Positions 11,921 to 19,281 of a DNA stretch of 35,453 bases are shown piece after piece. Origin of the DNA: a virus. How positions within the stretch are numbered: position 1 is the first letter of the stretch; each line of letters begins with the position of its first letter. The DNA lies in IMG/VR virus record IMGVR_UViG_3300031566_000190, positions 1 through 35,453 of that record. One strand, given 5' to 3'. The notes under the pieces are model-generated. The model searched no databases. It was not told the origin of the DNA and saw only the letters and a list, made by a program, of their open reading frames with translations. Position numbers and translations under genes: made by a program.

Positions 11921-12207
11921 GACTTTATTTTATTTTCTTTCCGCTCCGCCGCCCTCACCTGCTGGCCCAGCCACTTGACGAACCGGCGCCGGAATACCCA
12001 GGTGAAGCCGTCTACCTGATAGCCGCAACCCTTCGGCCAGGGCTTGTCGTAAAAGTACAGATCAAAGTCGTGCCGCCACTCGCGCAGGCGCCTTTCCGCG
12101 GTCCCGGGCTTCATCCCCTTGACATGCCGGAATACATCACAATGGCAGATCAACCCGCCGTCCAGCTTTTCCAGCAAATACTTTACGCAAAGTATTTTTT
12201 CGGTCAT
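11917..12207 (-). CDS. Small basic protein, possible DNA-binding
   Basis: A 96-aa basic protein, coupled by ATGA to the methyltransferase upstream. The N-terminus has a helical pattern with ICHCDVFRHV and PGTAERRLREWRHDF, which could be a winged-helix or helix-turn-helix, and the C-terminus is rich in Arg/Lys (FRRRFVKWLGQQVRAAERK). It is the last gene of the recombination/methylation transcript before the replication promoter. I do not recognise a family. A DNA-binding regulator is plausible from charge and pattern only. Confidence 0.6.
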   Translation of the reverse strand: MTEKILCVKYLLEKLDGGLICHCDVFRHVKGMKPGTAERRLREWRHDFDLYFYDKPWPKGCGYQVDGFTWVFRRRFVKWLGQQVRAAERKENKIKS

Positions 12208-13598
12208 GTGGCCTCCTTGAAGTTTAGTTTTTTATTTACAAGCGTAGCATCTATGCGCTTGCGGGCGATTTCGCAGTATTCGGCCTCACGTTCAATGCCG
12301 ATGTAGTTAAGGCCTTCGAGTTTAGCGCCCTTGCCCGTGGAGCCTGAGCCGATGAACGGATCTAAAACTATGCCGTTGGGCGGCGTTACGAGGCGGCACA
12401 GATAGCGCATGAGGGCGGTTGGCTTAACGGTGGGGTGATTGTTGCGACTTATCCCTGTCCATCCAGTCGGTTCCGGGCATTCACAATGACATCCAGATTT
12501 TTCTCTCTGTTCCGAATAAGTATGTCCACATTTATTACATTTGAAATGCCAACTCGTTACGGTTTGGCCTTCCATCCCCTCGCACCCCTCATCCCTATCC
12601 TGTTTGCTTGCCTTGGCGCAGTAGAAAAAGCGGGCGGCTGAGCCGGAGTCGCCGATACGGGTGCCGTTACCCTCATGATTTCCACAAAACATTGATCTCC
12701 CATTTTGGGATAATCCACCACCCCGCACATATCCAGCACCATGAACAACCGGAAACCCCGCCAGCACTTCCTCGCTGCCGTCGTGTATGAGGTTCGCGGG
12801 GAAGCGGCCTTGTTGAGCACGTTCCTTAGCTTCCGCATTGTGTTTTGAAACTTTATCGGCATCTGCCATCCACGGACGGCACCATCCCTTGTCGCTTAAA
12901 TCTTTACGGCGGAAGGCATCTCCAGACAAGGCCGCATCTTTATCAAAATCAGAAGCATATTCAACCCTGCACCCATCCACATTGATCCCCCCCGTGCCGT
13001 ATTGCAGTACATTGGCGGCAACCGTGCCGATCAGCGGCTTACGGGCCAGCGTCCACAACTCCATTGCGGGCTTGAGGGCGGTTCCCCAGCCCTCCCATTT
13101 GGAAGTGCCAACGGTATTATAAACCTCAATGCGTGGTTTTTGGGTGGCAATGCCGCCATGTAATTCCGCTATACCGGTTTCTTTGTCCCTACGAATATCG
13201 GCATAGGTTCCATTTTTTTTACCTGTAATCTCCCGGTCATTCCCCCGTATCTTATCCACCGCCTTGCCAATATTCAGCGATTTCGGAAAACCTGAGCCGT
13301 ATATCCAGGCGATCAAATCTCTAATCTCAAATCCAGCATCCTCGATGTTTACCGCCATGCGGTGCTGCGTCCTGGTTCCGCAAGCGCACAAAATATGCCC
13401 GCCGGGTTTCAGCACCCGCAAGCACTCGACCCATACCTCAACTTTTGGCACATCATAATCCCAATGCTTACCCATGAACGAAAGGCCGTAGGGCGGGTCG
13501 GTGACTATGCTGTCAATGGAGTTATCCGGCATGGTCTTTAGAATCTCAAGGCAATCGCCCTGCAAAACCTTGTTGATATAATTAATTGGCCAAATCAT
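12204..13598 (-). CDS. Beta-class DNA N-methyltransferase
   Basis: A 464-aa S-adenosylmethionine-dependent DNA methyltransferase. Motif IV TDPPYG lies near residue 33 and motif I DPFIGSGSTG near residue 420, so the order is beta class (N6-adenine or N4-cytosine). The long middle region (about 100-370) would hold target recognition. It includes a Cys-rich insert, CNKCGHTYSEQREKSGCHC (about 355-375), that looks like a zinc ribbon. GAGAGGTAGGA gives a good ribosome site. Its ends resemble the smaller methyltransferase at 17613: both have INKVLQGDCLEI-type openings and RIDxTLVNKKL endings, so they are paralogues. No restriction enzyme is nearby; self-protection or regulation is likely. Confidence 0.9.
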   Translation of the reverse strand: MIWPINYINKVLQGDCLEILKTMPDNSIDSIVTDPPYGLSFMGKHWDYDVPKVEVWVECLRVLKPGGHILCACGTRTQHRMAVNIEDAGFEIRDLIAWIYGSGFPKSLNIGKAVDKIRGNDREITGKKNGTYADIRRDKETGIAELHGGIATQKPRIEVYNTVGTSKWEGWGTALKPAMELWTLARKPLIGTVAANVLQYGTGGINVDGCRVEYASDFDKDAALSGDAFRRKDLSDKGWCRPWMADADKVSKHNAEAKERAQQGRFPANLIHDGSEEVLAGFPVVHGAGYVRGGGLSQNGRSMFCGNHEGNGTRIGDSGSAARFFYCAKASKQDRDEGCEGMEGQTVTSWHFKCNKCGHTYSEQREKSGCHCECPEPTGWTGISRNNHPTVKPTALMRYLCRLVTPPNGIVLDPFIGSGSTGKGAKLEGLNYIGIEREAEYCEIARKRIDATLVNKKLNFKEAT

Positions 13599-17612: not shown

Positions 17613-18296
17613 TCAGGATTTTGTTTCCAGGGCGGCGAAATCCAATTTCTTGTTGACCAACGTACCGTCTATGCGCTTTTGGGCGATTTCGCAGTATTTC
17701 TCTGATATCTCTATACCGATAAACTGGCGGCCCAATAGCTTGGCTGCAACGCCGGTTGTGCCTGAGCCGAAAAAGGGGTCGAGGATGATGTCGTTTTCAT
17801 CTGAATAATTATTGACTATATCCTTCCAAAGGCGAATTGGTTTTGGACAAATATGACCAATGGCACTATTGTCATTCAAAAAACCATTGTCAACATAATG
17901 TTCAAATACATCGCTATCACGTTGACGTTTATGTTTTCCATAAAAAAGTATTGGTTCCCATTTTGCGAAATGAGCGATTGAAGCGCCACCATGAGCATTG
18001 GATTTTATCCAACTTCCTATCTCTGCTGGAAATAAAGATAACCATAAATTGAGATTTTGTCTTCCGGGAGTAATTATAATATTTAAGCAAATCCTTCTTA
18101 TGGCGTCAAACCACAAATTTACTAATTCACAATATTCGGATTGAGATTTATTGTCGTCGTAATTATCATACTTCAAATTGATATTATACGGTGGATCGGT
18201 CAGCACCAAGTCCACGCTCTTGTCGGGGATGCCTTTCATTATCTCCAGGCAATCGCCGCAAATAATTTTGTTTACAAAGTCACCGGGGTATATCAC
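17613..18296 (-). CDS. Small beta-class DNA N-methyltransferase
   Basis: The GTG at 18296 overlaps the stop of the cytosine methyltransferase as GTGA, giving 227 aa. Motif IV TDPPYN is near residue 37 and motif I DPFFGSGTTG near residue 182, the beta-class order, so it should methylate N6-adenine or N4-cytosine. It is close to a minimal catalytic domain, with a short recognition region (about 60-165). Opening GDFVNKIICGDCLEIM and ending RIDGTLVNKKLDF mark it as a paralogue of the 464-aa enzyme at 12204. A longer reading from 18350 would extend into the 38-bp repeat and is not favoured. It is the last gene of the methylation block. Confidence 0.88.
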   Translation of the reverse strand: MIYPGDFVNKIICGDCLEIMKGIPDKSVDLVLTDPPYNINLKYDNYDDNKSQSEYCELVNLWFDAIRRICLNIIITPGRQNLNLWLSLFPAEIGSWIKSNAHGGASIAHFAKWEPILFYGKHKRQRDSDVFEHYVDNGFLNDNSAIGHICPKPIRLWKDIVNNYSDENDIILDPFFGSGTTGVAAKLLGRQFIGIEISEKYCEIAQKRIDGTLVNKKLDFAALETKS

Positions 18297-18330
18297 TTCC
18301 CCTCCCGGTCCCGGACGTACTGCTCCAGGG
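18293..18330. repeat. 38-bp direct repeat, copy 1 (end of cytosine methyltransferase)
   Basis: Identical at 35 of 38 positions to 19072-19109 in the same orientation. It covers the stop/start overlap and last codons of the methyltransferase, encoding LEQYVRDREGK. The pair flanks the methyltransferase gene. Confidence 0.9.
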
Positions 18331-19075
18331 ATGCAGTCAAGATATTCCATGCCATTGCAGCCACTGCCGGAACTTGTCCATTTCCAATAGCTGCAAGTCT
18401 GTCCATTTGATAGGCCAGCCCATCCACAATTCCCCGATGACCGGATTCAGTTTCCCAGCTTTGCAGATTGTCTTTGATTTTATAACAGTCGTCAAAGATG
18501 CTCCCCATCTTCTTCCATCCTTCGCTATTTCTGATGTTCCTTCCAATGTTCTGCACCCCGTTGAGTCTATCTCTGTTTTGCATATAGTTGGCCATAATCC
18601 AGATTCTATCTCGTTTATGCGGCGCCCCGGCGTCAACAGCTCCCAGCACTCCCCAAATTGCATCATACCCCATCGTGGCCAAGTCTCCAAGGACTGTTCC
18701 AAGTCCACGAATAACCAGCGCTGGGGAATTTTCCACGAAGCAGTAACGAGGTTGTATTTCGCGAATGATCCTGGCAAACTCTCCCCACAGTCCAGATCGT
18801 TCTCCACCGATACCTTTTCTTTTCCCTGCGACTGAAATATCTTGGCATGGGAATCCTCCACAGACAACATCGACTTTTCCTCGCCATGGCTTTCCGTCAA
18901 AGGTTCTGACGTCATCCCAGATCGGGAACTTTGGCAAGATTCCGTCTCGTTGTCGCTGCAATAAGACTTCTCGGCAGTAAGGTTCAATTTCAACAGCACA
19001 TACTGTGGTATGTCCGAGAAGGATTCCGCCGAGGATACCCCCCCCTGCTCCTGCAAATAAGTGTAGCTCATTCAC
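18293..19075 (-). CDS. C5-cytosine DNA methyltransferase
   Basis: A compact 260-aa C5 methyltransferase starting at GTG 19075, which overlaps the preceding stop as GTGA. The motifs are in the standard order: I ELHLFAGAGGG (residues 3-13), IV with catalytic Cys GGFPCQDIS, VI ENSPAL, VIII RDRIWI, and IX-X AIGNGQVPAVAA near the end. The target-recognition part is short (about 170-215). The C-terminus LEQYVRDREGK repeats the C-terminus of the upstream zinc-finger protein, because the gene is flanked by a 38-bp direct repeat. A second long frame (18337-19071) runs inside it. Modification of phage DNA against host restriction is the likely job. Confidence 0.9.
   Translation of the reverse strand: MNELHLFAGAGGGILGGILLGHTTVCAVEIEPYCREVLLQRQRDGILPKFPIWDDVRTFDGKPWRGKVDVVCGGFPCQDISVAGKRKGIGGERSGLWGEFARIIREIQPRYCFVENSPALVIRGLGTVLGDLATMGYDAIWGVLGAVDAGAPHKRDRIWIMANYMQNRDRLNGVQNIGRNIRNSEGWKKMGSIFDDCYKIKDNLQSWETESGHRGIVDGLAYQMDRLAAIGNGQVPAVAAMAWNILTASLEQYVRDREGK
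18337..19071 (-). CDS. Second frame inside the cytosine methyltransferase (244 codons)
   Basis: An ATG 4 bases after the methyltransferase start opens a +1 frame that stays open for 244 codons, covering 94 percent of that gene. It begins MSYTYLQEQGGVSSAESF and ends with MGWPIKWTDLQLLEMDKF. I recall phage proteins with this kind of start (SSAE, FSDIP) and with a WMGWPIxWTDL ending next to C5 methyltransferases, but I cannot confirm this here. Random sequence would rarely stay open so long. The alternative is that constraint on methyltransferase codons keeps it open. Whether it is translated is unknown; it is rich in Ser, Glu and Trp and has no catalytic motif I recognise. Confidence 0.45.
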   Translation of the reverse strand: MSYTYLQEQGGVSSAESFSDIPQYVLLKLNLTAEKSYCSDNETESCQSSRSGMTSEPLTESHGEEKSMLSVEDSHAKIFQSQGKEKVSVENDLDCGESLPGSFAKYNLVTASWKIPQRWLFVDLEQSLETWPRWGMMQFGECWELLTPGRRINEIESGLWPTICKTEIDSTGCRTLEGTSEIAKDGRRWGASLTTVIKSKTICKAGKLNPVIGELWMGWPIKWTDLQLLEMDKFRQWLQWHGIS

Positions 19076-19109
19076 TTTGCCTCCCGCTCCCGGACGTACT
19101 GCTCCAGGG
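19072..19109. repeat. 38-bp direct repeat, copy 2 (end of zinc-finger ORF)
   Basis: The partner of 18293-18330, with 3 mismatches. It encodes LEQYVREREAK at the C-terminus of the zinc-finger protein and includes the GTGA start of the cytosine methyltransferase. Confidence 0.9.
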
Positions 19110-19281
19110 CGGTGAGGCGGGTTTCGACCTGTGCAATCTTCGATGCCAGATTTTTCCCCTTCCAAAAAGCATCATGGCAATCAGGCCCGCAATCCATCTG
19201 CCAGCTCGTAACCGGGGAAAAGATTTTTTGGCAATTTCGACAAGGTTTGTCTGGGTAACGCTTTGTCCTCACTTTGGCCAT
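19072..19281 (-). CDS. Zinc-finger/coiled-coil protein (69 aa)
   Basis: The first gene behind the consensus promoter, with AAGGAGG 8 bases before the ATG. It opens with a basic stretch (MAKVRTKRYPDKP), then a four-Cys finger, CRNCQKIFSP and CGPDCHDAF (CxxC...CxxxC), then a short coiled coil ending LEQYVREREAK. Zinc and nucleic-acid binding is likely. It sits directly before the cytosine methyltransferase, overlapping as GTGA, so it might regulate the methylation block; that is inference. Confidence 0.7.
   Translation of the reverse strand: MAKVRTKRYPDKPCRNCQKIFSPVTSWQMDCGPDCHDAFWKGKNLASKIAQVETRLTALEQYVREREAK

What the first reader, a model, noticed from the sequence alone, without database searches (positions are those of the whole stretch)
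18337..19071. A 244-codon second frame inside the cytosine methyltransferase gene
Seen: an ATG 4 bases after the GTG of the C5 methyltransferase opens a +1 frame that stays open across 94 percent of the gene. With three stops in 64 codons, a random stretch of this length would stay open only about once in 100,000. The product has distinct ends (SSAESF near the start, MGWPIKWTDL near the end) that I recall from phage proteins next to C5 methyltransferases. Either this is a true dual-coding locus, for example a methyltransferase plus a partner or anti-restriction protein, or codon constraint in the methyltransferase removes stops from this frame.
Basis: partly seen in the sequence, partly recalled or inferred. 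Interest (0 to 1): 0.75.

Follow-up and report, generated by a model that had tools for sequence, protein, structure and literature searches.

The report
Two-frame gene for split cytosine methyltransferase
One stretch of phage DNA is read in two overlapping frames, giving a DNA-methylating enzyme that lacks one conserved part and a second protein that seems to carry that part; the arrangement recurs in over a hundred distinct phage and bacterial versions, yet the database records checked list only one of the two proteins.

Summary
The +1 ORF (beta, 18337-19071, minus strand) lies inside the C5-methyltransferase gene (alpha, 18293-19075). Across 103 non-redundant relatives the +1 frame has 3 core stops; 452 are expected from synonymous-codon shuffles that keep the protein and codon usage. 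The +2 frame shows no deficit, nor do 30 canonical C5 methyltransferases (444 observed, 437 expected). The beta start codon, its amino acids and the alpha third-codon positions beneath them are conserved (98/98 GGG at one Gly codon). All beta-profile matches in 398 proteobacterial genomes lie in the +1 frame of an alpha-type gene. Alpha carries motifs I-VIII and X but not motif IX. Beta ends in a motif-IX-like LNPxxxEWLMGWPxGW. M.EcoHK31I divides the motifs in the same way (PMC3404938; its nested beta frame is from my memory). I infer a naturally split, overlapping-gene C5 methyltransferase in which beta supplies motif IX and perhaps target recognition. This variant has twin starts (GTGAATG) under one ribosome site and almost complete overlap. 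Dual coding is shown by sequence evolution. The subunit role is inferred: the profile match to motif IX is weak, and AlphaFold2 gives no confident fold for beta alone. Expression is untested.

The parts
18293..19075 (-). alpha: C5-cytosine DNA methyltransferase (260 aa, GTG start), motifs I-VIII and X, no motif IX
   Evidence: PF00145 3.3e-34, matched only to profile position 171 of 324; phrog_363 4e-66; profile alignment to canonical MTases covers motifs I-VIII and, weakly, X
18337..19071 (-). beta: +1-frame ORF, 244 aa, ATG 4 nt after the alpha start
   Evidence: open and conserved in relatives; phrog_1008 1e-11
19080..19085 (-). GGGAGG ribosome-binding site, 4 nt from the alpha GTG and 8 nt from the beta ATG
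   Evidence: sequence; same geometry in relatives with strong SDs, mostly 4-5 nt to alpha, hence 8-9 to beta
18578..19075 (-). alpha residues 1-166, C5-MTase motifs I-VIII (PCQ at residues 76-78, 18842-18850)
   Evidence: aligned to canonical C5 MTases, 1e-30, and to M.HhaI 15-178
18338..18412 (-). alpha motif X (residues 222-246, YQMDRLAAIGNGQVPAVAAMAWNIL)
   Evidence: second, weak profile alignment to canonical columns 283-312; invariant G and Q of GNGQ in relatives
18403..18450 (-). beta motif-IX-like segment (residues 208-223, LNPVIGELWMGWPIKW)
   Evidence: only alignment of the beta profile to canonical C5 MTases, at motif IX
18583..18759 (-). beta conserved core (residues 105-163; SWKT, PxWGMM, GECWE, G..PTP)
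   Evidence: invariant or near-invariant columns; strongest third-position constraint of alpha lies here and at motif IX
19072..19281 (-). upstream ORF, 69 aa; its TGA overlaps the alpha GTG and directly precedes the beta ATG
   Evidence: weak NinG match 3e-4, below Pfam's cut-off
17613..18350 (-). downstream N4/N6 DNA methyltransferase, overlapping the ends of alpha and beta
   Evidence: PF01555 1.3e-34
19072..19109 (-). 38-nt direct repeat, copy 1, at the end of the upstream ORF
18293..18330 (-). 38-nt direct repeat, copy 2 (92% identical), at the end of alpha; spacing 779 nt

Best explanation
The locus encodes a naturally split C5-cytosine DNA methyltransferase from two overlapping frames. 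Alpha, the large domain, binds AdoMet and carries the catalytic PCQ and ENS motifs (I-VIII) and motif X. Beta, started 4 nt later from the same ribosome-binding site in the +1 frame, carries motif IX and probably part or all of the target-recognition small domain. The subunits assemble into one active methyltransferase, which in this phage sits next to an N4/N6 methyltransferase and probably protects phage DNA from host restriction. Shown here: both frames are conserved, constrained coding sequences, and alpha lacks motif IX. Inferred: that the beta segment is motif IX, that beta is the missing subunit, that both proteins are made and assemble, the target-recognition role and the anti-restriction use.
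For: Openness: 3 core +1 stops vs about 452 expected in 103 non-redundant relatives; all four regions depleted; canonical control 444 vs 437. Amino acids: beta similarity exceeds codon-shuffled versions in 400/400 random pairs at z>3, median 6.8. Synonymous sites: third-base identity at fourfold codons 0.51 vs 0.31 expected; 98/98 GGG at alpha G136, 96/98 third base C at A133, all Val codons at 114 are GTG. Codon-position pattern shifts from alpha-like in codons 1-95 to shared constraint at the 3' end. Start: 86/102 loci have ATG at +4; Asn2 is AAT in 85/85 where alpha begins xNE, though AAT is 41% of Asn codons elsewhere. Partnership: all beta hits in 398 genomes lie +1 within alpha-type genes. 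Complementarity: alpha aligns to canonical columns 1-166 and 283-312; beta's only alignment is 260-276, motif IX (shuffled columns reach the score in 8/150 and 4/200). A motif-IX pattern occurs in the +1 frame of 59/100 alpha-type genes and in the alpha frame of none. Precedent: M.EcoHK31I, large subunit I-VIII and X, small subunit IX (PMC3404938).
Against: The motif-IX profile match is short and weak alone (hhalign E about 0.1), as is the motif X alignment (E 0.07). AlphaFold2 gives no confident fold for beta (pLDDT 52 and 58) and Foldseek finds nothing, so the small-domain role is not shown structurally. Pfam, NCBIfam and PADLOC have no model for beta. The strict motif pattern was tuned on beta and matches only 7 of 30 canonical MTases. 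No expression or activity data. The first ~95 residues of beta are weakly constrained in sequence, so their role is unclear. A few loci have one stop in beta (L110, L004).
Confidence: 0.77

Rival explanations
1. Beta is a genuine overprinted protein with its own function (for example anti-restriction, host take-over or control of alpha) and is not a methyltransferase subunit.
For: Coding constraint shows only that beta is a protein, not what it does; the N-terminal third has no counterpart in canonical MTases; the motif-IX match is statistically weak.
Against: No beta was found outside an alpha-type gene. Alpha-type genes lack motif IX while many canonical MTases show it in frame and none as a group shows +1 constraint. 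The beta segment lies where motif IX belongs, between VIII and X. A characterised enzyme is split the same way.
Confidence: 0.15
2. The +1 frame is open only because of amino-acid and codon constraint in alpha; there is no second protein.
For: For the window gene alone the openness is only p=0.008; some high-GC genomes give few expected +1 stops.
Against: 3 vs about 452 stops over 103 genes, no deficit in +2 or in canonical MTases, near-invariant synonymous third bases, start-codon selection, beta amino-acid conservation above shuffles.
Confidence: 0.02
3. Beta is reached by programmed frameshifting from alpha rather than by its own start, giving a fusion of the alpha N-terminus and the beta C-terminus.
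For: Same strand, +1 relation; in a distant branch only the C-terminal part of beta is recognisable, so an N-terminal start matters less there.
Against: Beta has its own conserved ATG (or GTG) 4 nt after the alpha start in about 90% of loci, at good distance from the ribosome site; two loci without it that were checked (L045, L098) have an upstream start in the beta frame.
Confidence: 0.05

Closest known systems
M.EcoHK31I (YGGCCR) two-polypeptide C5 methyltransferase
   Same: Large subunit has motifs I-VIII and X, small subunit supplies motif IX (PMC3404938). From memory, not verified here: the small subunit (about 176 aa) is encoded inside the large-subunit gene in an alternative frame, and M.EaeI is alike.
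   Different: Here beta is longer (about 230-310 aa in most relatives), starts 4 nt after alpha under one ribosome site and covers about 94% of the gene; mostly phage-borne. For M.EcoHK31I the cited paper assigns the predicted target-recognition domain to the large subunit; in the window the alpha VIII-X gap is only about 55 residues.
M.AquI (CYCGRG) split C5 methyltransferase
   Same: A C5 MTase made of two polypeptides that complement each other.
   Different: Divided after motif VIII within the variable region, with motifs IX and X both in the small subunit; here X is in alpha.
Monomeric phage and bacterial C5 methyltransferases (M.HhaI, M.HaeIII; PF00145)
   Same: Alpha aligns to M.HhaI 15-178 and PF00145.
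   Different: Canonical enzymes carry the TRD and motif IX in one frame and show no +1 coding constraint.
PHROG 1008 ('DNA methyltransferase')
   Same: The beta product matches it (1e-11); alpha does not.
   Different: The label describes a methyltransferase, but for this locus the match is to the overlapping beta frame.

Membership tests
M.EcoHK31I-type split C5 MTase | Large subunit with motifs I-VIII and X but no motif IX | tested here: met
   Profile alignment to canonical columns 1-166 and, weakly, 283-312; strict motif-IX pattern 0/100 in the alpha frame
M.EcoHK31I-type split C5 MTase | Small subunit carries motif IX | tested here: inconclusive
   Beta aligns only at motif IX but weakly (E about 0.1; 8/150 and 4/200 shuffles reach the score); pattern in 59/100 +1 frames
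M.EcoHK31I-type split C5 MTase | Small subunit encoded inside the large-subunit gene in another frame | tested here: met
   that EcoHK31I itself has this feature is from memory
M.EcoHK31I-type split C5 MTase | Both polypeptides needed for methylation | not testable with these tools
   Needs a reconstitution assay
M.EcoHK31I-type split C5 MTase | Sequence homology to the EcoHK31I/EaeI subunits | not tested
   Those sequences were not identified in the held collections and the 1995 paper is not held
M.AquI-type split C5 MTase | Motifs IX and X both in the small subunit | tested here: not met
   Motif X (GNGQVP) is in the alpha frame
Canonical monomeric C5 MTase | TRD and motif IX in the same frame as motifs I-VIII and X | tested here: not met
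   PF00145 match ends at position 171 of 324; no motif IX in alpha
Dual-coding (overprinted) gene | Stop depletion and synonymous-site constraint beyond the first frame's needs | tested here: met

The most novel reading that the evidence does not exclude
A large phage and bacterial family of C5 methyltransferases in which a module (target recognition plus motif IX) was moved into the +1 frame of its own gene, after which each frame evolved new sequence over the other: a roughly 95-residue N-terminal extension of beta over the first motifs of alpha, and a linker of alpha over the beta recognition region. Twin start codons under one ribosome site set the subunit ratio, and the two frames cannot be separated by recombination.
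Probability: 0.4. Interest if true: 0.78.

Novelty: new variant of a known kind. Interest (0 to 1): 0.64.

Why it matters
Long same-strand overlapping genes are hard to prove; here the statistics are unusually clean and replicated over more than a hundred non-redundant sequences. The records checked list only one frame, so either the methyltransferase or its partner is missing. In two phages only the beta frame is listed, as a hypothetical protein, and the methyltransferase is absent. If beta is needed, alpha expressed alone may be wrongly judged inactive. The family offers naturally split methyltransferases and a system for studying how one DNA stretch evolves under two protein constraints.

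Tried and rejected
Chance or codon-bias explanation: rejected by shuffles and by canonical controls. The +2 frame as a control was open no more than expected; its amino-acid similarity is also raised, as expected when third bases are held by the +1 frame, so one search was not used alone. Stand-alone beta genes: sought in 398 Pseudomonadota genomes, none found. Known families for beta: Pfam, NCBIfam, PADLOC and PDB sequences gave nothing; the profile search of the PDB gave one weak, unconvincing match (E 0.2). AlphaFold2 on beta with 43 and 134 sequences stayed at low confidence, and Foldseek on the second model found nothing. Which frame carries the target-recognition domain: codon-position rates in the variable region are nearly flat (0.43/0.34/0.41), so undecided. 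Literature: no paper found in the held library describes this phage family; M.EcoHK31I is named in four papers.

Full report
OBSERVATION. On the minus strand the C5-methyltransferase gene (alpha) runs from GTG 19075 to the stop at 18293-18295, and the reported ORF (beta) from ATG 19071 to the stop at 18337-18339, +1 to alpha. The beta ATG directly follows the TGA of the upstream ORF. A GGGAGG motif lies 4 nt from the alpha GTG and 8 nt from the beta ATG.

IS IT CHANCE? Shuffling synonymous codons within the gene keeps the alpha protein and codon usage. The window gene then expects 3.4 core stops in +1 and has none (p=0.008), suggestive only. I therefore took 80 viral loci selected by the alpha protein, not by beta. 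In 46 non-redundant ones (the window included) there is 1 core +1 stop against 193 expected, while +2 has 586 against 525. A second, wider scan plus phages and bacterial contigs gave 57 more: 2 against 259, with +2 at 798 against 697; this second set includes a few loci that were found through beta. Every part of the frame is depleted (1/70, 0/51, 1/172, 1/146). As control, 30 canonical C5 methyltransferases from Pseudomonadota show 444 against 437.

IS THE BETA PROTEIN CONSERVED? Among 400 random pairs at about 60% alpha identity, beta similarity exceeds codon-shuffled versions with median z 6.8 and minimum 3.1. The +2 frame also rises (median 3.8), as expected when third bases are held. Directly, third-base identity at shared fourfold codons is 0.51 against 0.31 expected; alpha G136 is GGG in 98 of 98 sequences, the third base at A133 is C in 96 of 98, and every Val at position 114 is GTG. 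These bases create conserved W, P and G residues of beta. Constraint is weak over beta 1-95 and strong over about 105-160 and from motif IX on. Substitution rates by alpha codon position in 62 closer pairs agree: 0.098/0.056/0.278 in codons 1-95, but 0.231/0.140/0.240 at the 3' end, where the position mostly silent for beta is as free as the position mostly silent for alpha. In the variable region the three rates are nearly equal, so neither frame dominates.

THE START. In 86 of 102 loci an ATG stands at +4, usually as ATGAATGAG or GTGAATGAG. In all 85 where alpha begins xNE, Asn is AAT, though AAT is only 41% of Asn codons elsewhere. Strong Shine-Dalgarno motifs, where present, sit mostly 4-5 nt from alpha, hence 8-9 nt from beta; about half the loci show none. 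Some loci lack a start codon for alpha at this place and appear to begin alpha upstream while keeping the beta ATG.

PARTNERSHIP. A beta profile found matches in 25 of 398 Pseudomonadota genomes; every match fetched lies in the +1 frame of a gene matching the alpha profile. No stand-alone beta was found. In one E. coli prophage both frames carry stops. Two viral loci carry a single beta stop with good beta sequence beyond it.

WHAT BETA IS. Alpha matches PF00145 only to position 171 of 324. Against a profile of canonical enzymes, alpha aligns to columns 1-166 (motifs I-VIII, 1e-30) and weakly to 283-312 (motif X, E 0.07); the gap holds the target-recognition domain and motif IX. The only alignment of beta to the same profile is to columns 260-276, motif IX: LNPVIGELWMGWP against LSPREAARLQGFP. 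This match is short and weak alone (column shuffles reach it in 8/150 and 4/200 cases), but it falls where the missing motif belongs. A motif-IX pattern lies between VIII and X in the +1 frame of 59 of 100 alpha-type genes and in the alpha frame of none (the pattern was tuned on beta). A distant prophage-like branch has LLNPEHTRWLMGFPPGW in the +1 frame. AlphaFold2 does not fold beta confidently on its own and Foldseek found nothing; this neither supports nor contradicts a subunit that folds only with alpha.

COMPARISON. PMC3404938 states that M.EcoHK31I has motifs I-VIII and X in the large subunit and only motif IX in the small one. That the small subunit is nested in another frame is my recollection of the 1995 paper, which is not held. 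M.AquI is divided differently. The present family works like M.EcoHK31I; homology to it could not be tested. It differs in its near-complete overlap, twin start and phage distribution. Annotators of the records checked kept only one frame: alpha in Salmonella phage S9-5 and E. coli PT62, beta in Vibrio phage 1.236 and Pseudomonas phage VB_PaD_phPA-G.

STATUS OF EACH STEP. Shown: dual-coding constraint; selected beta start; absence of motif IX in alpha; no beta outside alpha genes in the genomes searched. Inferred: translation of both proteins, identity of the beta segment as motif IX, assembly, the target-recognition role, protection against restriction. An origin by frame-swap of a module is a hypothesis.

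Noticed in passing
window 18293-18330 and 19072-19109: A 38-nt direct repeat (92% identical, spacing 779 nt) ends the upstream ORF and ends alpha, each copy covering the last 12 codons plus the stop and including the ribosome site of the next gene. The alpha/beta gene looks like a cassette bounded by direct repeats, and the LEQYVRDREGK tail of alpha comes from the repeat.
   Followed up: partly
L288 and L289 (Vibrio phage 1.236, Pseudomonas phage VB_PaD_phPA-G): Public records annotate only the beta frame, as a hypothetical protein, and miss the methyltransferase; PHROG 1008, labelled DNA methyltransferase, matches the beta frame of the window locus.
   Followed up: partly
window 12204-13598 and 17613-18350: Two N4/N6-type DNA methyltransferases in the same 35-kb phage contig besides the C5 enzyme.
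   Followed up: no
L117 (same contig as L014): The beta frame runs past its usual end (439 aa) into a sequence with the alpha motif X, suggesting an indel or assembly error that joins the frames.
   Followed up: no
L354 (E. coli PCP07014): Prophage copy with stops in both alpha and beta a few bases apart; RefSeq marks alpha as a pseudogene.
   Followed up: partly
L304, L305, L310-L317: A distant alpha branch (HFFAGIGGW...) in proteobacterial genomes also has a +1 ORF; in the two members read in full only a shorter WPTPTARD...LLNPEHTRWLMGFPPGW-like part of beta is recognisable.
   Followed up: partly
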